From: Isoetes taiwanensis
Lineage: Eukaryota > Streptophyta > Lycopodiopsida > Isoetales > Isoetaceae
Direction: 5' to 3'
Length of the DNA: 64,000 bases
Assembly: GCA_021234155.1 (NCBI GenBank)
Contig: JAJEKV010000201.1
Coordinates: forward strand, 1 to 64,000
Part shown: positions 5,309-49,292 of the stretch, one piece after another
Layout: every line of letters starts with the position of its first letter
Numbering within the stretch: the first letter of the stretch is position 1
Notes under the pieces: model-generated
Told to the model about the DNA's origin: nothing
Databases searched by the model: none
What the model saw: only the letters and a program-made list of their open reading frames with translations
Position numbers and translations under genes: made by a program

Positions 5309-5770
5309 AGCTTTGTATTTTTATTTTATAAATTAATATACCATATTTACCCTCAAAAAAAAAAAATCTTTTAGTTTGTTTAGATGCAACAGAATACCAA
5401 GTTCTTGCCTCGCGCAAGCCAATGCTGCCCTAATGTCTACCAAATAATCAAATGCCTTTGGCAAGATTTGATTATCTACCACATTGCTAGAATAGAATTC
5501 AATAGACATCTTGAATGTTCTCTAAGAAGGTAGAATAGAATAGAATCTAATAGACATTTTAAATGTTCTCTAAGACTGATGCTGGATGTGACACAAAACA
5601 ACCACGACAAACTGCAAAATAACAACATTAAAAGAATCGAGTAGAGTTTTTTTCACATTAAAAAAGATTCAAGATGGTCATGAGACAATATAGGATGAAG
5701 ATTGAATGAATTACAACCCCACACTTATCGGATGACAATTGATAATCACAAATCAAGACAGTTTCTAGGA

Positions 5771-5787
5771 AAAAAAAAAAAATAAAC
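5771..5787 (-). terminator. Pol III terminator (T-run) of the 5788-5859 tRNA
   Basis: On the minus strand the tRNA is followed by AGTTTATTT and a long run of T, a strong RNA polymerase III terminator. Every unit has an equivalent A-rich tract on the plus strand; lengths vary from about 6 to over 30, as expected for a slippery homopolymer. Confidence 0.8.
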
Positions 5788-5859
5788 TATCAGAGCCAAG
5801 TTTCGATCTTGGGACCTGTGGGTTATGGGCCCACCACGCTTCCGCTGCGCCACTCTGAT
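5788..5859 (-). tRNA. tRNA-iMet (CAT), array consensus copy
   Basis: A full 72-base cloverleaf. The acceptor stem is ATCAGAG/CTCTGAT with A1:U72, the anticodon stem GTGGG/CCCAC, the loop CCCATAA with anticodon CAT, and the T-loop ATCGAAA. A1:U72 and the AUCG T-loop mark eukaryotic initiators rather than elongator tRNA-Met. The discriminator is A. Boxes A and B are intact. Upstream on the minus strand lies TTGTTATCAAG, which supplies a plant-style CAA start motif just before the gene. The T-stem is CCAAG/CTTGG, whereas the usual plant initiator as I recall it is CCAGG/CCTGG, so one pair is changed on both sides. The product would start translation in the cytosol. Confidence 0.95.
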
Positions 5860-6415
5860 CTTGATAACAATCAGTGTATTGAATATCTTTTAGTTTGTTT
5901 AGATGCAACAGAATACCAAGTTCTTGCCTCGCGCAAGCCAATGCTGCCCTAATGTCTACCAACTCCAATGCCCCTCTCAACTTCATTTAGAGAATGCACA
6001 TAGATGTAGAAAAACTTTCTTGCATTATGCTTCATATAAAATGAACAAAAGCACTATAGCCACGAAAACTACCTCTGAAATCACTCCTATAATCAAATGC
6101 CTTTGGCAAGATTTGATTATCTACCACATTGCTAGAATAGAATTCAATAGACATCTTGAATGTTCTCTAAGAAGGTAGAATAGAATAGAATCTAATAGAC
6201 ATTTTAAATGTTCTCTAAGACTGATGCTGGATGTGACACAAAACAACCACGACAAACTGCAAAATAACAACATTAAAAGAATCGAGTAGAGTTTTTTTCA
6301 CATTAAAAAAGATTCAAGATGGTCATGAGACAATATAGGATGAACATTGAATGAGTTACAACCCCACACTTATTGGAGGACAATTGTTAATCACAAATCA
6401 AGACAGTTTCTAGAA

Positions 6416-6451
<36 letters not shown>

Positions 6452-6454
6452 AAC

Positions 6455-6526
6455 TATCAGAGCCAAGTTTCGATCTTGGGACCTGTGGGTTATGGGCCCA
6501 CCACGCTTCCGCTGCGCCACTCTGAT
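6455..6526 (-). tRNA. tRNA-iMet (CAT), array consensus copy
   Basis: It is identical to the 5788-5859 copy across all stems and loops. Its terminator tract, to the left on the plus strand, is one of the longest in the array (about 30 A in a row). It looks functional. Confidence 0.94.
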
Positions 6527-7112
6527 CTTGATAACAATCAGTGTATTGAATATCTTTTAGTTTGTTGAGATGCAACAGAATACCAAGTTCTTGCCTCGCG
6601 CAAGCCAATGCTGCCCTAATGTCTACCAACTCCAATGCCCCTCTCAACTTCATTTAGAGAATGCACATAGATGTAGAAAAACTTTCTTGCATTATGCTTC
6701 ATATAAAACGAATAAAAGCACTATACCCACGAAAACTACCTCTGAAATCACTCCTATAATCAAATGCCTTTGGCAAGATTTGATTATCTACCACATTGCT
6801 AGAATAGAATTCAATAGACATCTTAAATGTTCTCTAAGAAGGTAGAGTAGAATAGAACCTAATAGAAATTTTAAATGTTCTCTAAGACGAATGCTGGATG
6901 TGACACAAAACAACCACGACAAACTGCAAAATAACAACATTAAAAGAATCGAGTAGTGTTTTTTTCACATTAAAAAAGATTCAAGATGGTCATGAGACAA
7001 TATAGGATGAACATTGAATGAGTTACAACCCCACACTTATTAGAGGACAATTGTTAATCACAAATCAAGACAGTTTCTAGAAATAAAAAAAAAAAAAAAA
7101 GGAAAAATAAAC

Positions 7113-7184
7113 TATCAAAGCCAAGTTTCGATCTTGGGACCTGTGGGTTATGGGCCCACCATGCTTCCGCTGCGCCACTCTGAT
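7113..7184 (-). tRNA. tRNA-iMet (CAT), variant copy
   Basis: Two differences from consensus: the 3' acceptor strand is CTTTGAT, giving one G:U wobble, and the D-stem 3' strand is GCAT instead of GCGT, giving a C:A mismatch. Anticodon and T-loop are unchanged. It may still be transcribed, but its fold is weakened. Confidence 0.75.
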
Positions 7185-7762: not shown

Positions 7763-7830
7763 TATCGAGCCAAGTTTTGATCTTGGGACACATGGGTTAT
7801 GGGCCCACCACGCTTCCAATGCCACCTAAT
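7763..7830 (-). pseudogene. tRNA-iMet relic
   Basis: The anticodon loop (TTATGGGCCCAC on the plus strand) is recognisable, but acceptor, D-arm and T-arm carry small deletions and substitutions and box A is damaged. It should not give a stable tRNA. Confidence 0.85.
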
Positions 7831-8420: not shown

Positions 8421-8492
8421 TATCAGAGCCAAGTTTCGATCTTGGGACCTGTGGGTTATGGGCCCACCACGCTTCCGCTGCGCCACTCTGAT
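8421..8492 (-). tRNA. tRNA-iMet (CAT), array consensus copy
   Basis: It is identical to the 5788-5859 gene, with an A-rich tract (T-run on the minus strand) directly downstream. It looks functional. Confidence 0.94.
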
Positions 8493-9083: not shown

Positions 9084-9154
9084 TATCGAGCCAAGTTTCG
9101 ATCTTGGGACCTGTGGGTTATGGGCCCACCACGCTTCCGCTGCGCCACTCTGAT
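9084..9154 (-). tRNA. tRNA-iMet (CAT), acceptor stem one base short
   Basis: The plus strand reads ATCGAG where other copies read ATCAGAG, so the 3' acceptor strand lacks one base and the seven-pair stem cannot form fully. The rest matches consensus. It is probably impaired in 3' processing or stability. Confidence 0.7.
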
Positions 9155-9698: not shown

Positions 9699-9770
9699 TA
9701 TCAGAGCCAAGTTTCGATCTTGGGACCTATGGGTTATGGGCCCACCACGCTTCCGCTGCGCCACTCTGAT
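9699..9770 (-). tRNA. tRNA-iMet (CAT), near-consensus copy
   Basis: It differs from consensus only in the anticodon stem, where one G:C pair becomes G:U (27:43). A long T-run follows. It is likely functional. Confidence 0.9.
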
Positions 9771-10349: not shown

Positions 10350-10419
10350 TATCGAGCCAAGTTTCGATCTTGGGACACGTGGGTTATGGGCCCACCACGC
10401 TTCATTGCGCCACTCTGAT
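10350..10419 (-). pseudogene. tRNA-iMet relic
   Basis: The acceptor stem is shortened and the D-loop has lost bases (TTCATTGCGC in place of TTCCGCTGCGC on the plus strand). Copia element A begins 34 bp away on its 5' side. Confidence 0.85.
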
Positions 10420-10919: not shown

Positions 10920-13900
10920 TTCCCCCTTCATGTTATGTCTGCATATTGAATTAATCTTCTCCGTTCCAGAAATCTTCCTTCAGGCAAGACTTTTGTTAAA
11001 ATGTCTGCTAGTTGAACTGTAGTATTAACATAGATCAACTTTGCTAGTCCCTTATTAACAGCTTCCCTAATGAAATGTAATTCTAATCCAATATGTTTGG
11101 ACCTCTCGTGCAAAACTGGGTCCTTTGACATTGCTATGCAACTTGTGCTGTCACAATATATCTGAGTAGCCTCTGGTTGTGGAAATCCAAATTCAATAAG
11201 TAGCCTTCTTTCCCAAATGAGTTCTCTTACACAAAGAGTGGCAGCAGCATATTCTGCTTCAGCACTAGATAAAGCAATTGAGCTTTGCTTTTTGCATTTC
11301 CATGATATTGGTCCTCCACCTAATAACATTAAATATCCAGATGTGGATCTTCTAGTGTCAATGCAACCTCCCCAGTCTGCATCACAGTATGAGCTTAAAA
11401 TCATATTCTCTGTGCAATAAGTTACCCCTATATCCATGGTCCCTTTAAGATATCTGAGTACACGTTTTGCTGCTTTCCAAAGATCCCTTCCTGGATCATT
11501 GTTATATCTGCTCAACATATTTACAATATGAGATATATCTGGCCTTGTGCAATTGGCAACATAGGATAAACACCCTACTAGTGATCTGTAAGGAGTCTTA
11601 GCCATTTCAGATCTTTCAGTGTCATTTTTAGGGCTCATGTGCTCAGATAATTTCTGACCTGGTACTGCAGGTGTTTTACAGATCATCTTAAATTTTTTAA
11701 GCATGCTTTCAATTTGCCCCTTTTGAGTGAGAGTGATTATTTTATTTTCTCGATCCCTTTTGACCTCAATACCTAAGAATTTCTGCAACTCTCCAAGATC
11801 TGACATTTTGAATCTTTTGTTCAAGATACCTTTGCACTGCTCTAAGCATGTTTTAGCTTTTGCTATCATGATGTTGTCATCAACATAAAGTGCAATAATG
11901 CACCATTCATTTCCAGCCACAAATTTATAGATATTTCCATCATTATTAAATTTGCTGAATCCCTGTTCTATCAAATAGGAGTCCATGCATTTATACCACT
12001 CTCGAGGTGATTGCTTGAGTCCATATACTGCCCTTTTTAATTTCTAGACTTTACCTTCACCTTCCTCAAAACCAGGAGGTTGTTTCATAAATATCTCTTC
12101 TTCAAGCTTAGCATTTAGAAAAGCAGTGTTAACATCCATGTGATGTATTTCAAGGTCACAAGCATTGGCTATTGACAACAACATTCGAATGCTATTCATT
12201 TTGATAAGAGGTGAGAAAGTCTCCTCATAATCAAAGCCTTTTTCATGAAAAACCTTGTGCAACTAGCCTTTTTATATTTTGGAGTTTTTCCATCGGGACC
12301 AGTTTTCAGCCATTGAACAACCACTTGTTACCTACTATATTTTGTCCTTCGGTGCATCTACCAGGCTCAAAGTTTCGTCTTCTAAAAATTCCAATTCATC
12401 ATTCATGGCTCTTATCCATTCAGTTTTATCATGTTTAGTTAATTTGCTTCATAATAAGTCTTTGGAACATTAGTATCTAGATGCATTAGAATTTCAAATA
12501 AATCATGAATCTCACCTTCATTCTCCTGAAGTCTTTTACTTCTTCCAAACTCGTCTCGTCCATGTTGGATTGTATCTATTGTTAATCCTCCCTGCAACCT
12601 TTGAACCTCTGTCAGTCTCTTTTTTCTTGCCTGCTTGACATTTGTTCCATCATTATCTTGTACTGGTATGATATTATTTTCCCCTCAACATCCGGGTTTG
12701 CAACATTCTCTATTTGACTAGCAACATCTCTCATGTGAAGTTGACCCTAACCTCATCTTCTTTCCAGGATTCAATATCGGCGAGAATATGATGGTTGCTC
12801 ATTTTCTTGAGTGACTTTGACTTCACCACTTCCTTCTTCTTCTTTTATTTCAGATGATTTGCACTCCATATCAATATCATGTGTATTCACCTTAGGCATC
12901 AATTTATAAAATTGATTTTCATCAAAGATAACATCTCGACTTACCACCACCTTCCTTTTATGAGGATCATACAATCTATAGGCTTTTGATTGTGCATCAT
13001 AGCCTACCATATACGTTATCAGTGATTTGTCATCTAGTTTCTTCCTGAGCTCATCAGGTATATGTACAAATGCCAAGCATCCGTATGCCTTTAATTTTTC
13101 ATAATGAGGTAGACCATAACATTTCTGGAATTGTACCTTGTACTGCCAATGAAGGTAACATGTTTTGTACATGAACAAAGGGACTCTGTTAATAAAAAAG
13201 AAAATTTGGCAACCCCGAAAATTTTTAGCATAATGGGACACATAGATTCAAGATTGTCCTGTTCTTCCTTTACGCTATCCCATTGAAACTTGAGGTGAGT
13301 ACACAAGTAAGTTGTCTTTTAATTCCTTCTTCTTGCGGTTTGTTTGAATTCATCCGATATGAACTCCCCTCCTCGAATAGATCTCAAACACTTAATTTTT
13401 CTCCCTGTTTCAGTTTCAACTTCACTAACAAATTGCTTGAATGTTTCAAATGCTGCATCCTTAGTCCTTAAGCAATAGACAAATGTCTTCCTGCTAAAAT
13501 CATCAATAAGGGTCATGAAGTATCTTTTGCCATTTAGGCTTGTTACATTTAGTGGTCCACATAGATTTGTGTGAATCAGATCTAGCTGTCCTTTGGCCCT
13601 TTTACGAGATTTTTTAAAAGGTAGTCTGCAGTGCTTCCCTAGTATACACCCTGCACACTTTAGCTCTTCTGCATTTTTGCTAGCATTAATCATTCCCTTT
13701 TTTATCAGAAGTTCAATAGTTCTGGAATTCACATGACATAATCTATGATGCCAATTTTCCAAGGTTGGGAGACCAACATAATTAATCTTTGAAATCAAGA
13801 TATGATCATTGCACAAATAGAAACAAATTGCCAACTCTTTTCCCAAAAACATTATTTTATTATTGAGGAAAACCTTACAATGCAACCTCTCAAATAGGAC

Positions 13901-15212
13901 CTTGTAGCCTAGGTCCACTAACCGAAGACAGAATTAAATTCCTTACTAAGAAACCCGTGACACAAAGAACATTTTCCAGTTGTAACCTCTTCCCCTCTAA
14001 ATCAAACAATTCCAGAACACCTACGTCTTCTATTTCTTGAAGGTCACCATTCCCTAATTGAACATGTCCACCTTTTTTGCCTCTGCAACTTTTGAGGATA
14101 TTGGAGTTTGCTGCTGCTGTTTTTTCAGCTCCAGAATCTATGATAATTACATCATGATCAATATTATTCTTAACAAGGGAAAACATTTTAGGAATGCTTA
14201 CCTCAGCATCTTCATCGAGCTCATCTTCCTCAATTTGTTTGTCTTCACCAAGATTAATTGTGGGATTCCTTTTTGTGGTCCTCTCCCTGTTCTCATACCC
14301 TCTCCCCGACATTAGGATTCTTATCCTTTCAACAATTTAGGACTTGGACAGACTTTGCTTAATATGCCCTTTGCCTTCCACAGAATATAGCATATTTTTT
14401 TTTTTTTTGTTCTTGAATGTTCCGGCTTTAAGATGACCATAGCTATTTGCAATTATAGCATGGTCCTACCTTCTTTTCTCCTTATTTCTTTTGTACCTTC
14501 CAGTGTACAATACTTCAGAGATCGTCATCATGCACTTTACTCTGCTCAAACTCAGTTTGTACTATTTTAATGGCATGCTCCTTGGACTTTGCAATATTCC
14601 TTATCAGGGTTGCAAGATGGAAATTATGAGATACTTGCCCACGAGATATAGCCAACAACTGATATTCTTCATTGAATAACTCCAAAGCACCTTCAAGGTC
14701 GGCTATAATAGAGTCAAACTTCTCAAAAAACTCATATGTTATCCTTTTCGTGCAGCTTTAACCTTCTTAATTGCTTCTCCAAAACATCTATTTGAGATGA
14801 AGTCTTGGCTTCATACTCTTTGATTAAATACATCCACATTTCTCTTGGAGTCATACCCCTCAGCTTCAACTTAATTGCAGATCCCACCTTGCAACCCCAA
14901 TTGCACAGGCCTCCATACTTTTTATTTTTTTGATCTTCCCCAAATCTTGGATGAATTCAAAACTTTCGGCAGGTGCCCTCAAACAAGATCCTTCACCACT
15001 TGAGCTGGAGCTTGTTCCCCTTGACTAGAAGTCCCTGCTCTTACAATCACAGGTGAACTACTGGCAGCAGTTGGATCAACCAAATACCATAATTTTTCAA
15101 ACTCCAACACTTCTCTAATGCTCTGCTTCCAAATTTGAAAGCCACCATCACCTTTAAAGACCTCTATAGAATTTAGCAGATTAGCTCCAAAACGAGTGGC
15201 CATGCTTCTTCA

Positions 15213-15230
15213 ACCTGGCTCTGATACCAA
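15213..15230 (-). other. Copia A primer-binding site for initiator tRNA-Met
   Basis: On the minus strand TTGGTATCAGAGCCAGG follows the LTR end. This complements the 3' end of initiator tRNA-Met, the classic plant Copia primer site, and lies just upstream of the gag start at 15203. Confidence 0.85.
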
Positions 15231-19980: not shown

Positions 19981-20033
19981 AATTGATCTGCTCGCATTAA
20001 CTCTCTATCCTTAAGATTCCTTGCGTTCTTAAA

Positions 20034-32139: not shown

Positions 32140-32141
<2 letters not shown>

Positions 32142-35630: not shown

Positions 35631-37540
35631 TCTTATATTATAAAGTTTTAGCGTATGTCTTGCATCAAACCCTAATTTAGATAGTTGAGATCGTCTGATT
35701 GCATTTAAAGACCGAGATTTATCGCACAACTTCCCACCACCGTGATTGGCCATGCTCTGATCTCTTAAGAGGAAAGGAAAAATGGCAGAGAAAAGGGCAA
35801 AGTGAGAGGCAAAAAGGCACGGGTAAAAGGGAAAGACGGAGAAGGGAAAAGGAAAGGGAAAAGAAACGAAAAAGGGAAAGAAAAAAGAAAGGGAGAAAAA
35901 GGAAGGAAAAAGGACACTATGAAAAGAAGAAGGGGGGAAAGGGTGAGGACATAATAAAGGGAAAAAGAAAAGGGAAGGGGAGGAAAAGGAAGAAAAATAG
36001 GACAACGGGAAAAAAAAGTGAAGAACTAGGAAAGGGTGATTTTCTTAAAAGGGGAAGATAAGAATGATGGAGAGAAGGAAAAAAGGGCATGGAAAAATAG
36101 AAAGGGAAGGAAAAAGGAAAAAAGAGGCGAAAAAGGGAAAAGGGCATGAGGAAAAGGGAGAGGGAAATGAGAGAGAAAAGGAGAAAGTGGCATGAAAAGA
36201 GGAAAAGGGTGAGGAAAGGAAAAAAAAAAAGGGAAAAAGAGATGGAAAAAGGGAAAAGCGAGGAAGCAAAAAAAGAACATAAAACATGGAATAGGAAAAG
36301 AGGAAAAGGGAAAAAGGGGAAGAGGGTGGGAAAAGGAGGAAAAAGGGCATGTGAAAAGGTGGGAAAAATGGAATGGAAAAAGTGTGGGAAAATGGAAAAG
36401 GAAAAGAGAAAGGAAAAAAAAAGGATTGGAAAGGAAAAGGGAAAAGGGCATGGAAAAAAAGAAAAATGATGAAAAAAAAGGAAATGGGAGGCGAAAAGGA
36501 GGCGAAAAAGGGAAAGGGAGAGAAAAAGAACCACGAGGAATAAGGAGGGAAAATGGAAAAGAGGAAGGGAAAAAAAGGACCACGGAAAAAAGCGGAAGAG
36601 GGAAAGGGTGAGGAAAGGGGTAAAAATAAAGGGAAAAAGAGCATGGGGAAAGGGAAAAGAAAAAAAAAAAAGGGGAATAGGGGACGGGGAAGAGGGGAAG
36701 AGGGGTAGGGAAAGGCGGAAGAAAAGGCAAGTAAAAAAAAAAGTGGAAAAAAGGGAATGGAAAAATACATGGGAAAAAGGGAAAAAGGGAAAAAAAAAAG
36801 GGAAAGGGAAAGGGAAAAGGGAAAGGGGAAAGGAAAAGGAAAAAGAAAAGGGGGAAGGGAAGAGGAAAAGGAAAAAGGCAAAGGAAAAAGGGAAAGGGTG
36901 GGGAAATGATGAAAAAAAAGAAGGAAAAAAGAAAAAAAAAAAAGGAGGCGGAAAGGGGAAGGAAAGGAAAAAAAGGCATGAGAAAAAAGGAAGAAGAAAA
37001 TGGGAAAAAAGAGACATGAGATAAAGAAGAAGAGGGTGAGGAGAGGAAGAAAAACATAAAAAAAAAAAGTGGAGAAAAGGGAATGCAAAAAGGGCATGAG
37101 AAAAGGGAAGGGAAAAGAGAAAAGCAAAAGGAATGGAAAAAGGAAAGGGAAAAAAGAGCATGAGAAAAATGGGAAGGGTGGAGAAAGGTGAAAAAGGAAG
37201 GAAAAAAGCCGTCAAAAAAAGGGAAAGGGAAAGGGAAAAATGAGAAGGAGAAAAGGAAAGAAAAGAGGAGGGAGAAGAGGGTAAAAAAGAAAAGAAAAAA
37301 AAAAAAGAGAGAAGGAGAAAAGTAAATGTGCAGGGAAAATAAGAAAAGGGAAAAAAGAAAGTGTGTAAGAAAATGAGAAAAAAAAAGATATGCAGGATAG
37401 AGCAAAGGGAAGGTTATCAAATGCACAAAAACCTCTTATAGCCTAGATATGATGGACTTGGTTAATAAGTCTGAGTTGAATAGGTTTCCATCCACAAATG
37501 TTCCCAACATTTGCCCAGCAACGCTGGGCACCATTACTAG
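35631..37540 (+). mobile_element. Complete non-autonomous Helitron (1910 bp) with empty site
   Basis: It starts TCTTATATTATAAAG after A35630. It ends with the hairpin TGCCCAGC-AAC-GCTGGGCA (37512-37530), CCATTA and CTAG (37537-37540), followed by T. The paralogous X2 repeat reads TTACA|TCTGTTATT uninterrupted at 45763/45764, exactly the site without the element and without any target duplication. The interior is a polypurine tract. No Rep/helicase frame is present, so it needs an autonomous partner. Confidence 0.95.
35770..37400 (+). repeat. Polypurine degenerate minisatellite of the Helitron
   Basis: About 1.6 kb almost wholly A and G. The words GAAAAGGGAAGAGGGAAAGG and GTGAGGAAAGG recur, and GGGCATG, GACATG or GAGCATG appears every several dozen bases, giving a ragged repeat structure. 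The minus-strand frames of up to 466 codons are Phe/Pro/Ser/Leu low complexity and not genes. Confidence 0.85.
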
Positions 37541-38728
37541 TCTGTTATTATAGTCATCCTTACTACAGTCATAGAACTTGATAGTATTAAAGCTGAACAG
37601 CAAAAATCAGATTGCTAACTATACTTGAAAATTGCTAGCAATCTATATTAAGTACTATTTATGAAAAAACTTTCAAGTATCGAAACACCCTGTAGACCGT
37701 AACATCTCTTATCCATTGTTATTGCAGCTGCAGTATTCATATGCCTTTGAATCAGCCTCTTAATCTTCTAGATCACCATCATCCTTAAAGCCAAAACCAA
37801 CACACGGAGCAAAAGTAACAATGGGAAGAAAATCCCGTACCTGCAGCCAATCAGTACCCTGTTAGCGTGAAAACGGTATCAGGGCAAGGGCCAAAAGGTA
37901 CATTGGAATTTTCAGTTCATCACTGATTACCCATTGTGCCTTTTGCCCTTTGTGTTAGAAATAGCAAAAAGAATAATGGAATAGGTCACAAGTAGCTACT
38001 TATCCATAGATGCATCAGTAATGAGATAATTTCTTATGGGCATCAATCAGTCTCAGCTTTAAATATAATGACATACTTAAATGCATGTATTCCTCTGCCA
38101 TACAATTAATACCAAAACAGAGTTTAACAATCCATCTGCAATATATCCTTGTATAATGGCACCAATAAAAAGCCTTCCTCCATACCTGTTTAAAACCTTC
38201 TTATATTATGTCTATCTGAATGTAACATGTAATTGTTATTAAGTCTTCAAGCATTTAAGTACATTAACAAAGTCTAATATAAGCTATATCAGCTTATTAC
38301 TGTGGCCTTATATCTGTATGTAGATTCTGGCTATCTTGGCAGTTTAAGCCATCCTATGTATCCTGGCATATATCTCCCTGTTTACCCTCTGATTTCCACT
38401 ATCTTCCATCAAGTATAGGTCAGCGGAGAGGAACTTTATCATGAACAATCATTTGTGCAATAATAAGATCTAGGATATTATACAGATTCAATTTTATGTG
38501 CCTACGTTCATGCTTGGCAGTTCAAAATATCAGATCTCAACAACTTATATTCCTGAACCATGATTAAAACATGTGTTCCTTGTAACAAATCAAAATATTC
38601 CCTGATTTATGTATCAATCCAGTGAAGCATATAATGTTTTGCCACAAGAGCTTAGCGGCCACTATTTGAATCTGCATTAATCAGAGCATTTATATGTTTG
38701 TAATACACCGATTCAGATATCTCTAAGT

Positions 38729-39070
38729 TTATTTTCTACTAAGATCAATGAAATAGATGTATTCATTGCGAAAATATAAGCTAAAGTGGAACCTGGTTGT
38801 AGTCCGGATCATTTTCATTTGTGCAGAGTATAAATCATCTTGGCGTCTCCTTCCATACTGTTTGGGTCCCTTATTGTAGTTGGGTCTCTCATCTCTATTG
38901 AAGTAGGTCCGTTTTTTGCCATAGCCGCCTCTGGAGCTACGAGAATCCATTGTCTCCTTATGCTTAGGTTCAGCAAAAGAGCAAAACCGCAGTTCTCGAT
39001 TCAAAGCTTCATTGTTAAGCCATTCCTCTCCTGAATCCGATGTCTCTTGTCCATCAGAGTCATAGCCCAT
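38729..39070 (-). CDS. Small RG-rich ORF in terminal repeat X1
   Basis: The frame starts MGYDSDGQETSDSGEE, then has a basic Arg/Gly/Tyr-rich stretch (RSSRGGYGKKR, QYGRRRQDD) like RNA-binding tails. Its last part differs from the X2 copy because of a short deletion. No family is recognised. Confidence 0.4.
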   Translation of the reverse strand: MGYDSDGQETSDSGEEWLNNEALNRELRFCSFAEPKHKETMDSRSSRGGYGKKRTYFNRDERPNYNKGPKQYGRRRQDDLYSAQMKMIRTTTRFHFSLYFRNEYIYFIDLSRK

Positions 39071-39438
39071 TGTCTTTAGGGCGCCATATTTCGATAAAAG
39101 GGTTTTTTGATACTGGATCTTTTCTAAGATTTGTGTAAGTAAATATCTTAGCCAACTGCCATCCTATATTATTTAGGACACTAGGTCAAGACCTCATCTT
39201 GCCATTAATTTTGGTAGTTGGATAGCAGTTCTCATTAAATATCTATGGGTCATAAAAGGCCCTAGCAAAAGGTATTGGAAACTGAGTCCAAAGATAATCT
39301 GCTATTAGGTCATTATGCTCCAACTTCTAAGGTAATTCATCTAAATATTACATTTTAGCGTCGAATCTTTTCATGTAACTAGTATACTATTAAATGTATA
39401 TGGTGTCTATGGTTATAAACACCATGTTATGTAATAAT

Positions 39439-39596
39439 ACAAAAAAAACCCTACCACCTTCCGTGGGATAAGGGAACACACCTTGAATTTACATGTCTGT
39501 GACCATGGGAGTGGCTAACCCCCACTGCCACAGCAAGGGTTAGGCCTTATCCCATACAAATTAGCAAAATGATATTGTAACATAAGGACATACCTT
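39439..39596. other. Structured end of the element centre
   Basis: Nested inverted repeats: TGGGATAAGG (39464-39473) pairs with CCTTATCCCA (39545-39554), and within them CTAACCC pairs with GGGTTAG. It lies between X1 and the retroposon. Hammerhead ribozymes are known in Penelope-like elements, so I looked for CTGATGA and GAAA cores and did not find them. Confidence 0.5.
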
Positions 39597-39610
39597 ATTT
39601 ATATGGGTTT

Positions 39611-40922
39611 TTTTTTTTTTTTTTTTTTTGTAGGCAAGATATTTATATTTTTATTGATAATAATAAGTAAATACATAGGCTCCACAATAGGCCTGATAGG
39701 CAGAATTATCACATCACCATCTTACTCCAAGATTGAGGTCTAAGGATTACAACCTTCTTTTCCAATGAAAGTACGGCTCGAGATCCCTCTAATAACTGTA
39801 ACTGTGTCCATCTGTAGCTCCACCACCGAAAGATGCTAGTAGTTGGAGGTCGTATGGGAGCAATCATCATTCCTCGCGTTAACTTGGCTTGGGATACCAT
39901 CTGCATTGCTGTACTATAAGAGAGAACTCTGTCTTCCAACTATGCAATACACCACAAGCCCTACCCTATAGAGGGTGGTCAAATGCAGCTCTCCATATTG
40001 CCCCTCCATCAACCAACATAGGCCACAACTACCTACATGGTGCTTTCAAGCAGCAATAAGAAAGCTATAGTCTCCCCGCCCAAAGCTTTCCGTTAGATCC
40101 CTTCCTTACCTGCATTGTACATTCTTGTTCTCACCCATAGATCCCAACCCCCTTCTTTGGGGACGGGGAAGGATGACACTAGGAGATTTAGATATGCATT
40201 CCGATTGTAAAAGATGATACATGGTGCTGCCTAAATGCTTCCATCAAACCACCAATGCACAAACACGCCCACTAGATCTGCGGCTCCGGGGTGCCTATTC
40301 TTGCGGATCAAGGAACACGAAACCTACTTCAGGCCACACCATTATACCCACTTCACGTTAGAAGGCATAACCTTCTGGCGTGTGTCTTTTGTCACGTAGG
40401 CAATGCTTAACAAGCAAACCATAAGCCTTGGCACCCGGCATATCATACAAAACAAATTGAAGAGTTGCCTAATATGAACCTGAACCTGCAATGGAGTGCG
40501 GTCCAACCATAAAGAACATGGCCTTCATGTTGCATTGGAGTGCAACACAAACTGAACAAAGCTTAAACACTCACACAACTGAAGTATAAATATCGATTCT
40601 CCAAAACTCAAAGGACAAGCTTACATATTGCCCACAGAGCCCTAGCACAGTCATGATTTGCTGCATTAAGAGAGAAGCATTGTAAGTGGCGGCCATACTA
40701 CAGAGCTGCACCCTTGCTGCACCAAACTGAACCAAAACAAGAAGGAAATCCATCTAAGGATCTGCAGCCACGGATTAGAAATAGCGGTGGCCCGGCTTAG
40801 GCCTCTTCGATAAGCGCCCCACCGAGGAAGAAGCTGCCCGATTACCTTGCGTGACGCCCGCCCGCCGCCCTAGGTCATTTTTGCCCCCATCGCCTTAGTC
40901 ATAATGGGATTGTAGCATAACC
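39611..40922 (-). mobile_element. Non-autonomous LINE-like retroposon, copy 2
   Basis: The poly(T) on the left (to 39629) is its A tail. ATTTATATGGGTTT flanks it on both sides (39597-39610, 40923-40936), a 14 bp target duplication. The 3' end (TAAATATCTTGCCTAC plus A-run, and a GGTATCCC...AAGTTAACGCG segment) matches copies 1 and 3, but the 5' half differs, so it is a distinct subfamily. No protein domain is seen. Confidence 0.88.
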
Positions 40923-40924
40923 AT

Positions 40925-42842
40925 TTATATGGGTTTCAAGTACTGTAGCAACACTTTGCTGTCGTAATGAAGTCCTGGGAATTCATTGTTGCATATATAT
41001 TTGTACACGCTTTTCCTCAGTCCTCTTATATCAAAGCCATTATCTATAAAATTCTGTATCAGCTTGTTAACATCTTTGGCTGCTCCACGGGGGCATGAAT
41101 TGATATACATAAACGGCAGTATTTGCGAGATGATAACATTCCTTGCCTGGTAGTAGGGTCTGCAGCTATTTGCATGGACATATTTGAGTACTGTGAAAGG
41201 TAGAACATCTCTCTTATCAAATTTAGATGTTCTGAATATTCCATTAGCCCGGCTGAGGATTTCAATTGTCATATTTAAGAAGTTCCCTTTGTATCCAAAA
41301 GTGGCCATAGGGTCTTCCTTAAAAGCAATAATCGTCTCTTCCTTGATGCCTAGAGCATCCATGTCATAAATGCACAGGTTTTTAGAAGTTCCTGTATCCA
41401 TATAACTAAGGAATTCTCTTATAATAGGGCAGTTGAGTGCCATAAGGTCGTCCATATATCTAGAAGATGATTTAAACATTTCAGCTTCTTTGTATCTTCC
41501 TTGCATGGCTAAAGTTCTAATGAAATCTGCTTCAAACCATGCCAAGTAAAGATTGCATCAGCAAGGGCTGCATGCAAAGCCCATAGGAATCCCACTGATC
41601 TGAGTCCATGTTCTTAGTCCTCTCATAATGAAACAGTTGGTTAACAGCCATATGTTAGCTCTAATAAATGTATCCATGGTTAGGAGGGTCCAACATTTCC
41701 CCTTTGGGTCAATTTTAAACCACTTGACGCTGAATTTATCATCCCCATCTTGCTTAACCCATAATTTGTTATTATGGTGTAAGTTACACATATATTTCCA
41801 TGCTTGTGTAATTACAAGTGTCAGAATTCGGCATATGCCAGATTCGCCCGTAAGTGGAATGATCTCATAGCATTTTGTGATATCTGCTACAAATATATTA
41901 TTGATCTTATCTGGTAAGTTAAGAATCACGTCATAAACGGACTGTATCATCCAGTTCGGGTTAATCTTACCTGGAAATAGATTACAATATTTTTCACATG
42001 TCTTTTTTGCTATATCAGGCCAGATTTTAGTAATCATGTTTAAGCCTGCAGTAATAACGTTGGAAAACCTTGTGTAAACTGTGCCATGTGCATTTGTAAT
42101 CCATAAGTAGATAGGGTAATCTTTCACTAGGATAGCATGTAAACGGAAAAATCTGTTCCATTTCATTCTTTACTTTCCATGTAATGGCAATTTGGTCAAC
42201 CAGAACTTCCCTGAAATCATTGTTGTTTAACCGGTCATAAGCTTTTTCTCTCATATGCTTAGGGCAAATAAATGCAGGGTTATTGGTGGCCTTGTCCACC
42301 CCTGCTATGTAGAGATGTTTATTAAGCCAATCTATGCTTTGAATTATTTTGCCATCATTAAGTGGGAATCTTCTGGTACAGTCCAGCTTGAAGGCTATTT
42401 TTAATGATTCAGCAACATTTTTTATCACTATGTCTTTCACTTTTTGCTTGTCAATTTCATCCAGATGTGGATATGTGAACCTATGTATCTCGAAGATACT
42501 TTCAATAGTAAGGTTAAGTTCCTTCACCAGCACATCCCATTCAAGACTCTTGTCTGGTATATGGTTCAGACCATACTGTAACATCTTCCGTAATTGTGTA
42601 TTATGTATGACTTTGAGATCCGTGGTCCTAATGTGCCCAATGGATACGTCTACAAAGTCTTTAAGCTGTGATAGTGAGCATGGGCAGACATTCTCTTCCC
42701 ATTTGGCAAATATGTAGAAGGGTTTATACAATATATCCCTCATATTTTCAGTATACTTCCATGCGAACATGGTATTTTCCATCATGTTCTCTCTAATCTC
42801 CCCGAAAGCTTCTACTACAGCTTTATGACATATTTTAGGCAA
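40925..42842 (-). pseudogene. Penelope-like reverse-transcriptase region (fossil)
   Basis: Successive minus-strand segments show, in order, a region with AGVDKATNNPAFICPK (like the ADKA.NN..VC block upstream of RT in Penelope-like proteins), RT motif A DITKCYEIIPL, motif B GIPMGFACSP, motif C RYMDDLM, and a C-terminal stretch with GNFLNMTIEI and FDKRDVLPF. The motifs follow Penelope-like RTs rather than LINE or LTR RTs. The coding region is broken in a few places. Group assignment is from memory of motifs, not a search. Confidence 0.6.
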
Positions 42843-43247
42843 GCATATCTTATCCAGGATTTTAAGTACAGTGTACTATTTTCTTTTTCTGTTTGGGTGC
42901 ACAATCCTTTAAATGTACTCTGCCCAACGAATCTCTTCGTAGGCATTTGGTAATCTGCAATAATTACGTGTAACGTTATATGTTAGTCCTATGCATCTAT
43001 ACATTAAAGTCCGTGTGTAAAGCTGGCTTGTGGTGGTATCCATCTAGGATAAATCCAATGTTTGGATTGTATTATAGCCAACTGGCCATTAGGTAACTCA
43101 TAAGTAATGAATTCCTTTTTAATGTTAGTCTGGTCATGATGTAGACCCATATTCAGAGTATTTCTATCACAATATGATATATATACAAACATTGATGCAA
43201 TCATAACATTCATTTGAAATGTGTATGTTAAAAAGGAAGAACATACC

Positions 43248-44672
43248 TTATGTATCATACTTGAGTGCTTGAACAGTATCACCATCAACTGAATGTGACC
43301 TTGTAACTGAATTTTTCGTGACTGAGTGCCCCACGTTGCCTGGAGATTCCAGCCCTTTCACTGTTATGTTTTCAGAGTGTTCTGTTTTAGTAGAACTATT
43401 AGGCAGAATAGTAATCCGTGGTGGAGCATTGATTTTAAACTTTGAGCCACTTGATTTAGCAGATCTGCTCTGTTTGGATGATTTATTACTGGTACTGGCA
43501 GTGCCATACGTCCCCTTGAGATAATCGATAGTTTTGATAGTTTTTTCACATATATCCGTCATGACGCCATTGGGAAACTTAATCTTCAGATCAGCCTGAG
43601 GATCTTCGGCTAAAGCCATAGTCATACCAATCAGCATATTCCTGACTTCTAGATATGCTATATAAGTTGTAACTCCAGCCTTGAGTGTTGTTTTAAGGCA
43701 ATTTCTAAAGGCCACAACTTGACCAGCATATGACAGATTAGGGTATATTGTGCTCAGGTTGTTGAGCATATACCAAATAGCTTGGTCAAACCAAATCATA
43801 TTCTCTCCACATTGGTCAGCCTGTTTTTCCTTCCCTCTATCATCACAGATACATTTAAAATAAGGACACATAGTGCGCCATATACGTTTAAGGTAGAAAT
43901 CATCCCTTCTGATGTTGGAGTAGGCCATGTGGCCTTTTTGGCACAGTATCATCAGTTCACGTTTTGTGCAATGCTTGTCAAAAAATCTGGTATCAACAGC
44001 TAGTTTTACCTTGATCATTTTCATGCGTTCCATTCGGAAGGCACCTGCCTTAGCAATACTAGCAGTCTCTTTTGAAATGTCCCCAAGTACCATCCATGCT
44101 TCTTCACTGATAGGTGCAAGGGCCCCGAAATTTTTAGTCCTCCAAATAGCTTGATTGCATAGCAGTCCGTGGTTTTCCACTAATCTTTTTGAAATGATAG
44201 GAAACTTAAGACAGTTTCTTAGTGTGAATTTGAATCCAATTTCTTTTTGCTGGTCACTACGAGGTGTATCTGATTGCATAGCAGCTTTATCATCCTCCGT
44301 TAATAGATCAGCCCCAAAGAGATCGTCCACTACACTGGATTCTTTGGCAGATAATTCCGTTTTCTCAATTCTGATCTGTTCATCCTCTTTGGCATGCGAG
44401 TTTTTAATCCCATTGACGTCCTCTAGAGCAGTGACATCAAGGATGAAATCCTTAGAACTTTCATCTTCCGCCTTTGTCCATTCATATACTTTTTGCGGTA
44501 AACCATCATACAAGCTATACACAAAAGGGAATACCTCCTCTTCCTTAGTTGAGAGCTTGTTGATACTTGGCAATAACATTAACCATTCGCTGAAACTGAG
44601 ATGAGTAACAGCAGAGATTTGTTCTGGGGTTCTAATAGCTTCCCTTTCCAATATAAGTTCATGGAACTTCAT
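43248..44672 (-). CDS. Unrecognised 474-residue protein upstream of the RT
   Basis: A long clean frame starting MKFHELILEREAIRTPEQ. It has an acidic region (about residues 60-140), a globular-looking Cys/Trp-containing middle (about 150-380, with FDQAIWYMLNNL and VAFRNCLKTTLKAG) and a Ser/Lys-rich tail. The frame is also open upstream to about 44812, where TTGGCAG precedes it and looks like a splice acceptor. I recognise no family. By position it could be an ORF1 (nucleic-acid-binding or Gag-like) product of the element; host origin is not excluded. Confidence 0.5.
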   Translation of the reverse strand: MKFHELILEREAIRTPEQISAVTHLSFSEWLMLLPSINKLSTKEEEVFPFVYSLYDGLPQKVYEWTKAEDESSKDFILDVTALEDVNGIKNSHAKEDEQIRIEKTELSAKESSVVDDLFGADLLTEDDKAAMQSDTPRSDQQKEIGFKFTLRNCLKFPIISKRLVENHGLLCNQAIWRTKNFGALAPISEEAWMVLGDISKETASIAKAGAFRMERMKMIKVKLAVDTRFFDKHCTKRELMILCQKGHMAYSNIRRDDFYLKRIWRTMCPYFKCICDDRGKEKQADQCGENMIWFDQAIWYMLNNLSTIYPNLSYAGQVVAFRNCLKTTLKAGVTTYIAYLEVRNMLIGMTMALAEDPQADLKIKFPNGVMTDICEKTIKTIDYLKGTYGTASTSNKSSKQSRSAKSSGSKFKINAPPRITILPNSSTKTEHSENITVKGLESPGNVGHSVTKNSVTRSHSVDGDTVQALKYDT

Positions 44673-45010
44673 ATTCTTAATGCAACACAGTATGCTTTGT
44701 ACAGCAGAATTTGGGCATTCAATTCGATTTTTATCATAGCCTATGTCAATCAGCTGTTTGTTCCAGGTAAGTGGTATGATTTCATACTCTTCTTCATCAT
44801 CAAATGCATCCTGCCAATTTCACATCACTTGAAGTAAACAATTTACATATCAGTAATATTTCAGAGGATTATAAACAAATATAAGGATTAAATAACAGTC
44901 ATACTTTATATATACTGAGTTAAATCTTAGAATAGATGATTAGCTCATACATTTAGCATATAGGTAAAGGATAACACCAGATATCTCCAGTGTGATGAAG
45001 TATCTAAAAA

Positions 45011-47680
45011 AAACCCAGCCTGAACTAGATAACCTAGACCAGACATCTGCTTCGGTCAATCCCTTAGCAGTATTATCATCCTATTACCAATATGAGCCAA
45101 ACTAGCATAGTATCCTTTTACCTATTTATCTTTCCGTTTTGCAATGTTTTAATCATGTTAAGCACTCGTACCATTTAGAAATATGTAAATGTCTTACCAT
45201 ACCACATTTGGTTCCTGCCTTAATACCTATGCATCAGTCTATTTTCAGAACCATTTTGCAATTAATCATTTTATATCTTATATCCATTGTCAGTCCTGTT
45301 TTTTACTCATACAACTAGTAATACTGTGATTTTCAGCCATTGTATAATGCTAAAATTCTGTATTTTTTAAGGCAGATGATTATTCAGCTAGTATTCAATC
45401 TCTACCATTCATTATTTCAAGATTTCTGCATATTTGGACAACAACAAGGTCCAGTATCAAGCTTCCCCTTCTTTTATACATGAAAATATCTGTATTTTTT
45501 CTTTTAGGACCTATAACTAAGATCAGTCCTTCCATTATATTATTTCCAACAGTAGCATAAGGTTTCAGCCCTGATATCTTCTGGAATATACGTGTATTTA
45601 CAGGAGATCCAGAATAGTCTATTAGAACACCTGAAAATTCTTATATTAGTATTTTGGAGGCATACAAACCTCTTGTAATACATGAACAGGTTTAAGATGA
45701 AATAGCTAATAAAAAGCCTTCTTTTTTGGGGAAATATATTAGTCACAAGTACAGATTATTACATCTGTTATTATAGTCATCCTTACTTGATAGTATTAAA
45801 GCTGAACAGCAAAAATCAGATTGCTAACTATACTTGAAAATTGCTAGCAATCTATATTAAGTACTATTTATGAAAAAACTTTCAAGTATCGAAACACCCT
45901 GTAGACCGTAACATCTCTTATCCATTGTTATTGCAGCTGCAGTATTCATATGCCTTTGAATCAGCCTCTTAATCTTCTAGATCACCATCATCCTTAAAGC
46001 CAAAACCAACACACGGAGCAAAAGTAACAATGGGAAGAAAATCCCGTACCTGCAGCCAATCAGTACCCTGTTAGCGTGAAAACGGTATCAGGGCAAGGGC
46101 CAAAAGGTACATTGGGATTTTTAGTTCATCACTGATTACCCATTGTGCCTTTTGCCCTTTGTGTTAGAAATAGCAAAAAGAATAATGGAATAGGTCACAA
46201 ATAGCTACTTATCCATAGATGCATCAGTAATGAGATAATTTCTTATGGGCATCAATCAGTCTCAGCTTTAAATATAATGACATACTTAAATGCATGTATT
46301 CCTCTGCCATACAATTAATACCAAAACAGAGTTTAACAATCCATCTGCAATATATCCTTGTATAATGGCACCAATAAAAAGCCTTCCTCCATACCTGTTT
46401 AAAACCTTCTTATATTATGTCTATCTGAATGTAACATGTAATTGTTATTAAGTCTTCAAGCATTTAAGTACATTAACAAAGTCTAATATAAGCTATATAA
46501 GCTTATTACTGTGGCCTTATATCTGTATGTAGATTCTGGCTATCTTGGCAGTTTAAGCCATCCTATGTATCCTGGCATATATCTCCCTGTTAACCCTCTG
46601 ATTTCCACTATCTTCCATCAAGTATAGGTCAGCGGAGAGGAACTTTATCATGAACAATCATTTGTGCAATAATAAGATCTAGGATATTATACAGATTCAA
46701 TTTTATGTGCCTACGTTCATGCTTGGCAGTTCAAAATATCAGATCTCAACAACTTATATTCCTGAACCATGATTAAAACATGTGTTCCTTGTAACAAATC
46801 AAAATATTCCCTGATTTATGTATCAATCCAGTGAAGCATATAATGTTTTGCCACAAGAGCTTAGCGGCCACTATTTGAATCTGCATTAATCAGAGCATTT
46901 ATATGTTTGTAATACACCCGATTCAGATATCTCTAAGTTTATTTTCTACTAAGATCAATGAAATAGATGTATTCATTGCGAAAATATAAGCTAAAGTGGA
47001 ACCTGGTTGTAGTCCGGATCATTTTCATTGTCTTGTGAGTCATTGACATTCTGTGCAGAGTATAAATCATCCTGGCGTCTCCTTCCATACTGTTTGGGTC
47101 CCTTATTGTAGTTGGGTCTCTCATCTCTATTGAAGTAGGTCCGTTTTTTGCCATAGCCGCCTCTGGAGCTACGAGAATCCATTGTCTCCTTATGCTTAGG
47201 TTCAGCAAAAGAGCAAAACCGCAGTTCTCGATTCAAAGCTTCATTGTTAAGCCATTCCTCTCCTGAATCCGATGTCTCTTGTCCATCAGAGTCATAGCCC
47301 ATTGTCTTTAGGGCGCCGTATTTCGATAAAAGGGTTTTTTGATACTGGATCTTTTCTAAGATTTGTGTAAGTAAATATCTTAGCCAACTGCCATCCTATA
47401 TTATTTAGGACACTAGGTCAAGACCTCATCTTGCCATTAATTTTGGTAGTTGGATAGCCGTTCTCATTAAATATCTATGGGTCATAAAAGGCCCTAGCAA
47501 AAGGTATTGGAAACTGAGTCCAAAGATAATCTGCTATTAGGTCATTATGCTCCAACTTCTAAGGTAATTCATCTAAATATTACATTTTAGTGTCGAATCT
47601 TTTCATGTAACTAGTATACTATTAAATGTATATGGTGTCTATGGTTATAAACACCATGTTATGTAATAATACAAAAAAAA
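45011..47680 (-). repeat. Long terminal direct repeat X2
   Basis: The uninterrupted 2.67 kb counterpart of X1. It is mostly AT-rich with no gene apart from the small RG-rich frame near 47 kb. It preserves the empty Helitron site at 45763/45764. It is followed by the poly(A) tract of a tRNA unit. Confidence 0.9.
46991..47302 (-). CDS. Small RG-rich ORF in terminal repeat X2
   Basis: 103 codons, starting MGYDSDGQ with an Arg/Gly/Tyr-rich basic centre and an acidic Asn/Asp end (NDSQDNENDPDY). It starts about 380 bp into the element on its own strand. It ends near CAG|GTTCC, which could be a splice donor. The function is unknown. Confidence 0.45.
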   Translation of the reverse strand: MGYDSDGQETSDSGEEWLNNEALNRELRFCSFAEPKHKETMDSRSSRGGYGKKRTYFNRDERPNYNKGPKQYGRRRQDDLYSAQNVNDSQDNENDPDYNQVPL

Positions 47681-47705
47681 TAAATAAAAAAAAAGGAAAA
47701 TAAAC

Positions 47706-47777
47706 TATCAGAGCCAAGTTTCGATCTTTGGACCTGTGGGTTATGGGCCCACCACGCTTCCACTGCGCCACTCTAAT
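47706..47777 (-). tRNA. tRNA-iMet (CAT), variant, paralogue of 19252-19323
   Basis: It shares the U3:G70 pair and D-loop change of its paralogue and adds a T-stem mismatch. It is probably impaired. Confidence 0.7.
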
Positions 47778-48368
47778 CTTGATAACAATCAATATATTGA
47801 ACATCTTTTAGTTTGTTCAGCAACAGAATACCAAGTTCTTGCCTCGCGCAAGCCAATGCTGCTCTAATGTCTACCAACTCCAATGCCCCTCTCAACTTCA
47901 TTTAGAGAATGCACATAGATGTAGAAAACTTTCTTGCATTATGCTTCATATAAAATGAACAAAAGCACTATAGCCACGAAAAATACCTCTGAAATCACTC
48001 CTATAATCAAATGCCTTTGGCAAGATTTGATTATCTACCACATTGCTAGAATAGAATTCAATAGACATCTTGAATGTTCTCTAAGAAGGTAGAATAGAAT
48101 AGAATCTAATAGATATTTTAAATGTTCTCTAAGACGGATGCTGGATGTGACACAAAACAACCACGACAAACTGCAAAATAACAACATTAAAAGAATCGAG
48201 TAGAGTTTTTTTCACATTAAAAAAGATTCAAGATGGTCATGAGACAATATAGGATGAACATTGAATGAGTTACAACCCCACACTTATCGGAGGACAATTG
48301 ATAATCACAAATCAAGACAATTTCTAGAAATAAATAAAAACAAAAAAACAAAAAAAGGGAAAATAAAC

Positions 48369-48440
48369 TATCAGAGCTAAGTTTTGATCTTGGGACCTGT
48401 GGGTTATAGGCCCACCACGCTTCCGCTGGGCCACTCTGAT
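48369..48440 (-). pseudogene. tRNA-iMet-derived locus with anticodon TAT
   Basis: The anticodon loop reads CCTATAA, so the anticodon is TAT (an isoleucine ATA reader) instead of CAT. It also has a D-stem mismatch and the box B changes of its paralogue at 24637-24708. It is probably dead; if transcribed it would be a mis-coding initiator-like tRNA. Confidence 0.7.
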
Positions 48441-49022
48441 CTTGATAACAATTATTGTATTGAACATCTTTTAGTTTGTTCAGATGCAACAGAATACCAA
48501 GTTCTTGCCTCACGCAAGCCAATGCTGCCCTAGTGTCTACCAACTTCAATGCCCCTCTCAACTTCATTTAGAGAATGCACATAGATGTAGAAAAACTTTC
48601 TTGCATTATGCTTCATATAAAACAAATAAAAGCACTACAGCCACGAAAACTACCTCTGAAATCACTCCTATAATCAAATGCCTTTGGCAAGATTTGATTA
48701 TCTACCATATTGCTAGAATAGAATTCAATAGACATCTTGAATGTTCTCTAAAAAGGTATAGTAGAATAGAATCTAATAGAAATTTTAAATGTTCTCTAAG
48801 ATGAATGCTGGATGTGACACAAAACAACCACGACAAACTACAAAATAACAACATTAGAAGAATCGAGTAGAGTTTTTGTCACATTAAAAATTTTCAAGGT
48901 GGTCATGAGACAATATAGGATGCACATTGAATGAGTTATAACCCCACACTTATCGGAGGACAATTGATAATCACAAATCAAGACAGTTTCTAGAAGAAAA
49001 AAAAAAAAAAAAAAAAAACAAC

Positions 49023-49094
49023 TATCAGAGCCAAGTTTCGATCTTGGGACCTGTGGGTTATGGGCCCACCACGTTTCCACTGCGCCACTCTGAT
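49023..49094 (-). tRNA. tRNA-iMet (CAT), D-arm variant
   Basis: It carries the same D-stem and D-loop changes as 25289-25360. A T-run follows. It may be active. Confidence 0.8.
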
Positions 49095-49292
49095 CTTGAT
49101 AACAATCAATATATTGAACATCTTTTAGTTTGTTCAGCAACAGAATACCAAGTTCTTGCCTCGCGCAAGCCAATGCTGCCCTAATGTCTACCAACTCCAA
49201 TGCCCCTCTCAACTTCATTTAGAGAATGCACATAGATGTAGAAAAACTTTCTTAGAGAATGCACATAGATGTAGAAAAACTTTCTTGCATTA

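What the first reader, a model, noticed from the sequence alone, without database searches (positions are those of the whole stretch)
5367..49292. Tandem array of 18 initiator tRNA-Met loci
Initiator tRNA genes are usually few and dispersed. Here each ~660 bp unit carries one copy with an AUCG T-loop, A1:U72, a CAT anticodon and a T-run terminator. Four copies match the array consensus exactly and a fifth differs only by a wobble pair. Known plant tRNA arrays that I recall are for Pro, or Ser-Tyr-Tyr. The array could raise initiator dosage, or be a selfish Pol III amplification.
Basis: partly seen in the sequence, partly recalled or inferred. Interest (0 to 1): 0.85.

Follow-up and report, generated by a model that had tools for sequence, protein, structure and literature searches.

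The report
Plant initiator-tRNA arrays with retrotransposon traces
A plant genome carries long arrays of initiator tRNA genes with their own signature base pair, and that signature also turns up, with the tail that finished tRNAs carry, next to jumping-gene-like sequences, suggesting that such arrays have been switched on and their tRNAs used to start retrotransposon copying.

Summary
In detail: 18 initiator tRNA-Met copies lie on the minus strand at 5788-49094 in ~660-bp units. Rfam accepts 15 of 18, ARAGORN 14; 4 are identical. The array is one of several: C971 (at least 87 kb), C534, and small or decayed ones; at least 86 copies seen, a lower bound. Array copies carry an A52:U62 T-stem pair (read in C1021 and C971; inferred for C534). 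At least six dispersed genes carry the usual G52:C62.

Window units show transition excess at CG (7.2%) and CWG (5.6%) against CHH 1.6% and A/T 0.7%, a methylation-like footprint. The tRNA bodies are not measurably more conserved than the spacer. So this looks like a silenced tandem-duplication cluster, not a clearly selected dosage device.

The surprise is a fossil record of use. tRNA copies ending in CCA and running past A58 occur 26 times: 22 array-type, 3 canonical, 1 mixed, 0 in the reversed-pattern control; 19 of the 22 abut LTR-like ends. Array-type tRNA was therefore probably transcribed, CCA-tailed and used as reverse-transcription primer. Known kind, new isotype, new kind of evidence.

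The parts
5363..5787 (-). truncated first unit (5363-5443 and 5444-5787, without tRNA)
   Evidence: blastn of unit
5788..5859 (-). iMet tRNA copy 1, consensus sequence
   Evidence: ARAGORN and Rfam 53.2 bits
6455..6526 (-). iMet tRNA copy 2, consensus sequence
7113..7184 (-). iMet tRNA copy 3, two substitutions
7763..7817 (-). iMet tRNA copy 4, indel-damaged (BLAST match spans gene positions 17-72)
   Evidence: no ARAGORN or Rfam call
8421..8492 (-). iMet tRNA copy 5, consensus sequence
9084..9154 (-). iMet tRNA copy 6, one-base deletion in acceptor stem
   Evidence: Rfam 39.5 bits; missed by ARAGORN
9699..9770 (-). iMet tRNA copy 7, one substitution giving G-U in anticodon stem
10350..10419 (-). 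iMet tRNA copy 8, indel-damaged
   Evidence: no ARAGORN or Rfam call
17727..17798 (-). iMet tRNA copy 9, consensus sequence
18589..18660 (-). iMet tRNA copy 10, one substitution
19252..19323 (-). iMet tRNA copy 11, two substitutions
24637..24708 (-). iMet tRNA copy 12, two substitutions, one at the B-box CpG
25289..25360 (-). iMet tRNA copy 13, two substitutions
33598..33665 (-). iMet tRNA copy 14, indel-damaged
   Evidence: no ARAGORN or Rfam call
34245..34316 (-). iMet tRNA copy 15, two substitutions
47706..47777 (-). iMet tRNA copy 16, three substitutions
48369..48440 (-). iMet tRNA copy 17, four substitutions, anticodon changed to TAT
49023..49094 (-). iMet tRNA copy 18, two substitutions
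49095..49292 (-). end of last unit, with a duplicated 33-bp stretch at the junction
19679..24409 (+). young Copia-type LTR element inside a unit: LTRs 283 bp with 1 difference, TGCTG target duplication, primer-binding site (19962-19975) matching the anticodon arm of this tRNA
10928..15229 (-). Copia-type coding remains with an initiator-tRNA primer-binding site of the canonical (CCAGGTT) type at its upstream end; element ends not mapped
34881..47680 (.). composite insertion with two pairs of long direct repeats (34881-35642/45014-45775, 99.5%; 37576-39448/45785-47680, 98.3%)

Best explanation
A cluster of initiator tRNA genes grew by unequal tandem duplication of a ~660-bp segment and was then cut up by insertions, several of them retrotransposons. 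The arrays appear to descend from a seed gene with a compensated T-stem pair (A52:U62), so they encode their own isodecoder. They sit in CG/CHG-methylated, mostly silent chromatin (inferred). Intact copies keep A and B boxes, an upstream CAA and a nearby T-run, so Pol III could transcribe them when chromatin allows. When that happened the RNA was trimmed and CCA-tailed, and served LTR retroelements as primer. Rare plus-strand synthesis past m1A58 then wrote pieces of the mature tRNA (mostly 36-66 nt) into the genome. Shown: arrays, isodecoder split, CG/CWG decay, array-type tRNA copies with CCA, 19 of 22 beside LTR-like ends. Inferred: methylation itself, silencing, episodic expression, primer use, and that these loci were the source.
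For: Units share flanks and show nested re-duplication (the junction at 25485-26990 reappears at 49252-50744, 97%). The closest relative of 8 of 15 window units (one a tie) lies in C971, so the arrays share recent ancestry or exchange. The six dispersed genes read are G52:C62. Transitions in the window: CG 23/319, CWG 18/320, CHH 41/2536, A/T 36/5276. Pattern with CCA through both diagnostic positions: 22 A52/T62, 3 G52/C62, 1 G52/T62, 0 A52/C62, reversed control 0. All 22 were read out: 19 adjoin an end of the form ACTGTRA(C/T)G; their 5' ends fall at tRNA positions 1 to 40, and by eye none continues into the array gene's leader, as a copy of the gene or of pre-tRNA could. Published biochemistry: plus-strand strong-stop normally halts at m1A58, and unmodified tRNA is copied further (PMC13191261, passages).
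Against: No RNA or methylation data. The fossils identify the isodecoder, not this window's copies. Nineteen of the 22 adjoin a few related ends, so the 22:3 ratio partly reflects which elements misfire and which primer-binding site they carry, not tRNA abundance. The CCA itself could be inherited with a primer-binding site; only the in-register run past A58 speaks for a copied primer. The read-through share does not differ between types (22 of 110 against 3 of 30, Fisher p 0.28). CWG sites in the window also have raised transversions (3.1% against 0.9% at CHH and CG), which deamination does not explain; base-calling error at methylated sites could contribute. One mixed copy (G52/T62) shows that position 62 alone can differ in origin.
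Confidence: 0.6

Rival explanations
1. Dosage array: selection for more initiator tRNA keeps many working copies.
For: 14 of 18 window copies are called as tRNAs; among the 40 genome matches scored, 24 match the canonical gene at 97%, as exact array-type copies would, against 6 canonical genes; outside CG/CHG sites the tRNA body varies less than the spacer (0.019 against 0.029 in the window, 0.014 against 0.034 in C971).
Against: That difference is not exceptional: 15% of 461 overlapping spacer stretches of equal length are as low. Over all sites the tRNA is more variable than the average spacer stretch (0.046 against 0.034 in the window). One copy has an altered anticodon and four have lost the B-box CpG.
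Confidence: 0.15
2. Silent junk: the arrays were never transcribed; the CCA-bearing copies came from a different, perhaps lost, A52:U62 gene.
For: Methylation-type decay; published Arabidopsis clusters are mostly repressed (PMC12308677 and PMC11700998, passages).
Against: Among the 40 scored genome matches to the canonical gene, every 97% match lies on C1021, C971, C534 or the small C1045 array; no dispersed A52:U62 gene without CCA was seen. These searches score only their best candidates.
Confidence: 0.18
3. Mobile amplification: each unit is a SINE or an LTR of a Helenus-like element carrying a tRNA promoter.
For: Helenus LTRs carry tRNA-derived sequence and one family forms tandem arrays (PMC10886601, passages). 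A few stray partial units exist (C930:4266184, C1054:10640694, C1019:4378348).
Against: The initiator primer-binding motif occurs in the window once, beside Copia coding remains and in no unit; the six dispersed genes lack the unit's flank; nearly all units found lie in arrays.
Confidence: 0.04
4. Assembly artefact: the array is inflated by misassembly.
For: C971 copies show indels concentrated at CAG/CTG (2.1 per site against 0.39 elsewhere; 0 of 505 shifted masks reach it), which looks like consensus error at methylated sites.
Against: Window units differ by 1-7% in the spacer and are separated by distinct insertions; window indels are not so concentrated (82 of 505 shifted masks reach the observed value).
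Confidence: 0.03

Closest known systems
Arabidopsis Ser-Tyr-Tyr and Pro tDNA clusters (PMC12308677 and PMC11700998, passages)
   Same: Tandem nuclear tDNA repeats from local duplication; methylation measured there, a methylation-like decay pattern here
   Different: Initiator isotype; ~660-bp spacing; broken by transposons; isodecoder-specific T-stem; traces of the product beside LTR-like ends
Maize chromosome 2 tRNA-Ile cluster of 28 (PMC11700998, passages) and Ile/Cys clusters of 26, 18 and 14 in the bryophyte Cpu, which I take to be Ceratodon purpureus (PMC12652284, parts 1-3 of 4 read)
   Same: Long tDNA arrays of one or few isotypes
   Different: Different isotypes; no fossil record of primer use in what I read
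Helenus / TRIMp3 elements (PMC10886601, passages)
   Same: tRNA sequence associated with LTR elements, tandem arrays in one family
   Different: There the tRNA-like part lies inside LTRs; here genes lie in a tandem array and the LTR-linked copies are pieces of mature tRNA
Plus-strand strong-stop read-through of primer tRNA (PMC13191261, passages)
   Same: Copying of primer tRNA beyond m1A58
   Different: In those passages known from HIV-1 in cell-free assays and cultured cells; here inferred from fixed genomic copies in a plant

Membership tests
Initiator tRNA-Met gene | A1:U72, GGG/CCC in anticodon stem, A54 and A60 in T-loop, CAU anticodon, no intron | tested here: met
   Sequences; ARAGORN CAT in 13 of 14 calls; the list of isotype features is recalled
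Initiator tRNA-Met gene | Charged and used in initiation | not testable with these tools
   No RNA data
Plant tDNA cluster, criterion of PMC11700998 | At least three tDNAs within 1 kb | tested here: not met
   Spacing of 615-667 bp gives at most two per kb; this survey's rule would pass over such arrays
Plant tDNA cluster, criterion of PMC12652284 | Neighbouring tDNAs less than 1 kb apart | tested here: met
   Copies 5788 to 10350 start 615-667 bp apart; 5788 and 6455 identical
Methylated, repressed tDNA cluster (SYY type) | CG and CHG methylation | tested here: inconclusive
   Indirect: transition excess at CG and CWG, with raised transversions at CWG too
Methylated, repressed tDNA cluster (SYY type) | Low expression in most tissues, activation in some cells | not testable with these tools
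   The copies with CCA suggest expression at some time only
Helenus/TRIMp3 element | tRNA-like sequence inside paired LTRs with primer-binding site | tested here: not met
   No initiator primer-binding motif in any window unit; sites for other tRNAs and LTR pairing of the unit were not tested
Primer-tRNA read-through product | CCA end joined to an LTR end, tRNA copied past A58 | tested here: inconclusive
   CCA and run past A58 shown for 26 of 26. 19 of 22 array-type copies adjoin ends also seen at ordinary primer-binding sites (L075, L080, L083, L090, L091). Of 3 canonical copies L108 has the same LTR-like end inverted on both sides; L066 and L098 share only a start. Full elements and LTR pairs were not mapped

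The most novel reading that the evidence does not exclude
The arrays act as a primer reservoir for retrotransposons: silent chromatin holds both, both are released together, and several LTR families have shifted their primer-binding site to the array isodecoder (110 array-type against 30 canonical 19-mers with CCA). The same tRNAs could equally feed 3' tRNA fragments that match these sites and curb the elements, as reviewed for mammals (PMC7472051, passages).
Probability: 0.12. Interest if true: 0.85.

Novelty: new variant of a known kind. Interest (0 to 1): 0.55.

Why it matters
Whether plant tDNA clusters are used is largely open; the Arabidopsis SYY cluster is silent in most tissues and was found active mainly in root-cap cells (PMC12308677, abstract and passages). 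Here a one-base-pair isodecoder tag separates array tRNA from ordinary initiator tRNA, and the genome itself holds CCA-bearing copies of the tagged form. That makes cluster expression and retrotransposon primer choice approachable from sequence alone, and in any species with a tagged array.

Tried and rejected
Purifying selection on the tRNA: not shown. SINE/LTR nature of the unit: little support. C1021 as alternate haplotype of the C971 stretch: no long near-identical collinear stretch between the window and the 50 kb compared (filtered list); the two contigs could still be parts of one broken locus, and the C971 end was not fetched. Hypomodified array tRNA as the cause of read-through: not needed, 22/110 against 3/30, p 0.28. 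Copy damage in C971 as real decay: doubtful because indels cluster at CAG/CTG and GCG. The low diversity of unit positions 193-472 was not explained. Species was not identified: one paper search on a guess (Isoetes) gave nothing, frames near organelle-like tRNAs were uninformative. The whole-genome count of near-intact 72-mers was asked for repeatedly and never answered. One search returned no units because its BLAST call gave no output; redone with other settings.

In the papers that I opened I saw no initiator array of this size and no such fossils. Searches made on these questions: (open full-text library only; supplementary tables not read, most listed papers not opened). PMC12652284 names iMet among identical tandem genes, and its supplementary tables may hold iMet clusters.

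Mended on re-check: window units with closest relative in C971 are 8 of 15, not 6; identity range, spacing range and one more insertion (18058-18248) corrected; the transversion excess at CWG and the stray partial units added; read-through membership lowered to inconclusive and the main confidence from 0.62 to 0.60, because only one of three canonical copies clearly sits between LTR-like ends and no LTR pairs were mapped. The odds of two rivals were raised by 0.01 each.
Full report
Observation. The window is the first 64,000 bases of contig C1021 (282,633 bases) in a 1.66-Gb genome of 1,110 contigs. It holds 18 copies of a 72-base initiator tRNA-Met gene, all on the minus strand. Rfam accepts 15 of 18 and ARAGORN 14 of 18. 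Three copies carry indels and pass neither. One ARAGORN call (48369) reads TAT. Four copies are identical; 9699 differs by one change that makes a G-U pair. The unit is about 660 bases, and truncated units bound the array at 5363 and 49292.

Anatomy. The intact genes keep what a plant Pol III gene needs: A-box and B-box regions, an AT-rich leader usually ending in TCAAG, and a T-run within about 20 bases of the 3' end (the motif names are recalled and agree with passages of PMC11700998). None of the 15 copies whose 3' flank was printed carries a genomic CCA, so the genes multiplied as DNA, not from mature RNA. Insertions break the array. The clearest is a Copia-type element at 19679-24409: 283-base LTRs with one difference, a TGCTG target duplication, and a primer-binding site that matches the anticodon arm of this same tRNA. 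Half-tRNA-Met priming is reported for the Osser, Bryco and part of the Gymco-II lineages (PMC6317226, passages). The junction at 25485-26990 is repeated at 49252-50744 at 97%, so duplication continued after that insertion.

Other arrays. A whole-genome search with one unit found further units on C971, C1060, C1045, C645, C1087 and C1019, and stray partial ones on C930 and C1054; the canonical gene as query added C534 and a wider span of C971, 1132049-1218954. In C971 units lie in both orientations. In the stretches that I fetched there are 68 tRNA matches: 18 in the window, 37 in 60 kb of C971 and 13 elsewhere. With 8 more in unfetched C971 and 10 in C534, at least 86 were seen. The searches score only their best candidates, so this is a lower bound. 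Six dispersed single genes were seen, five identical and one with one change. They have G52:C62 in the T-stem. The array copies read have A52:U62, a compensated change, apart from copies with further damage; C534 was not read, but its best copies have the two mismatches expected.

Evolution. Among 50 units (15 window, 35 C971; units with 300 aligned bases or fewer, or not reaching the tRNA end, were dropped) transitions in the window are 23/319 at CG, 18/320 at CWG, 41/2536 at CHH and 36/5276 at A/T. Excess at CG and CHG sites is the expected footprint of plant cytosine methylation. Transversions are also raised at CWG in the window (3.1% against 0.9% at CHH and CG), which deamination does not explain. 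The tRNA body is not measurably constrained: over all sites 84% of 461 overlapping spacer stretches of equal length in the window are as low or lower; with CG/CHG sites masked 15% are. In C971 indels concentrate at CAG/CTG (0 of 505 shifted masks reach the observed value), in the window not (82 of 505). I read the C971 pattern as likely consensus error at methylated sites; it could also be real damage.

Fossils of use. The 19-base pattern running from A58 to the CCA end occurs 110 times in array form and 30 times in canonical form, with 0 in the reversed control each time. I read 20 of the 110 and 20 of the 30 as samples: 16 and 18 of them stop at positions 53-57, as ordinary primer-binding sites do, whose sequence can be inherited by the element. 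A 29-base pattern that spans both diagnostic positions and the CCA occurs 26 times: 22 A52/T62, 3 G52/C62, 1 G52/T62, 0 A52/C62. I read all 22 array-type ones. One is full length with CCA and an A-rich flank (L054). The others begin at tRNA positions between 10 and 40 and, by eye, none runs on into the array gene's leader. Nineteen of 22 run into an end of the form ACTGTRA(C/T)G, the same ends that adjoin some ordinary primer-binding sites, and by eye at least 7 have the end of a sister family in opposite orientation on the other side. Counting three look-alike pairs once leaves about 19 events. The first copies were found with an array-type query, which is biased; the 29-base counts are not.

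Mechanism. In reverse transcription the plus strand copies the tRNA primer and normally halts at m1A58; unmodified tRNA is copied on towards its 5' end (PMC13191261, passages). The genomic copies fit such read-through products, joined aberrantly to other sequences. The simplest reading is that tRNA with the array signature was transcribed, trimmed, CCA-tailed and used as primer. The CCA alone could be inherited with a primer-binding site; the in-register run past A58 is the evidence. Which array supplied the tRNA is not shown.

Comparison. Plant tDNA clusters are known for Pro, Ser-Tyr-Tyr and Ile (PMC11700998, passages; PMC12652284, parts 1 to 3 of 4 read). The survey in PMC11700998 asks for three tDNAs per kb, which a 660-base unit cannot meet. 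PMC12652284 names iMet among identical tandem genes, and counts 1-34 iMet genes per species. The Arabidopsis SYY cluster is methylated, silent in most tissues and active in root cap cells (PMC12308677, passages). The present arrays are of that kind, with a new main isotype, a tag that identifies their product, and a fossil record of that product.

Limits. No RNA, methylation or second assembly was available. LTR ends were recognised by eye from short flanks; full elements were not mapped.

Noticed in passing
window 1391-5308 (+): Open frame of 1305 codons with endonuclease, reverse transcriptase and zf-RVT domains, a LINE-type element just before the array.
   Followed up: partly
window 40925-44819 (-): Several long frames with no Pfam match above cut-off, one with a GIPMGFACSPC stretch, lying between near-identical direct repeats (34881-35642 and 45014-45775); a basic, gag-like frame is present twice (38729-39163, 46991-47395).
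   Followed up: no
window ~26400-38000 and 55300-56900: Long pyrimidine- or purine-rich blocks built of TTTCCC/GGGAAA units, within repeated insertions 74-97% alike.
   Followed up: no
L063, L084, L113, L115 and others: Sequences beside the tRNA copies show GGTTCGAATAC-like and TGGTTAAGGGC-like stretches near their ends, resembling Pol III boxes; a plant counterpart of Helenus is possible.
   Followed up: no
C971 array (L040-L044, L072): Indels at CAG/CTG and GCG in many copies, in both tRNA and spacer; may record methylation through base-calling error.
   Followed up: partly
L040:8633 / L041:8438: One C971 tRNA copy is split near its anticodon by an insertion with inverted ends CACATCAAAAATGATG....
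   Followed up: no
C1021:259766-281011: High-scoring tRNA matches at the far end of this contig include a pair also seen in C1101, which looks organellar; the contig may hold an organelle-derived stretch.
   Followed up: no
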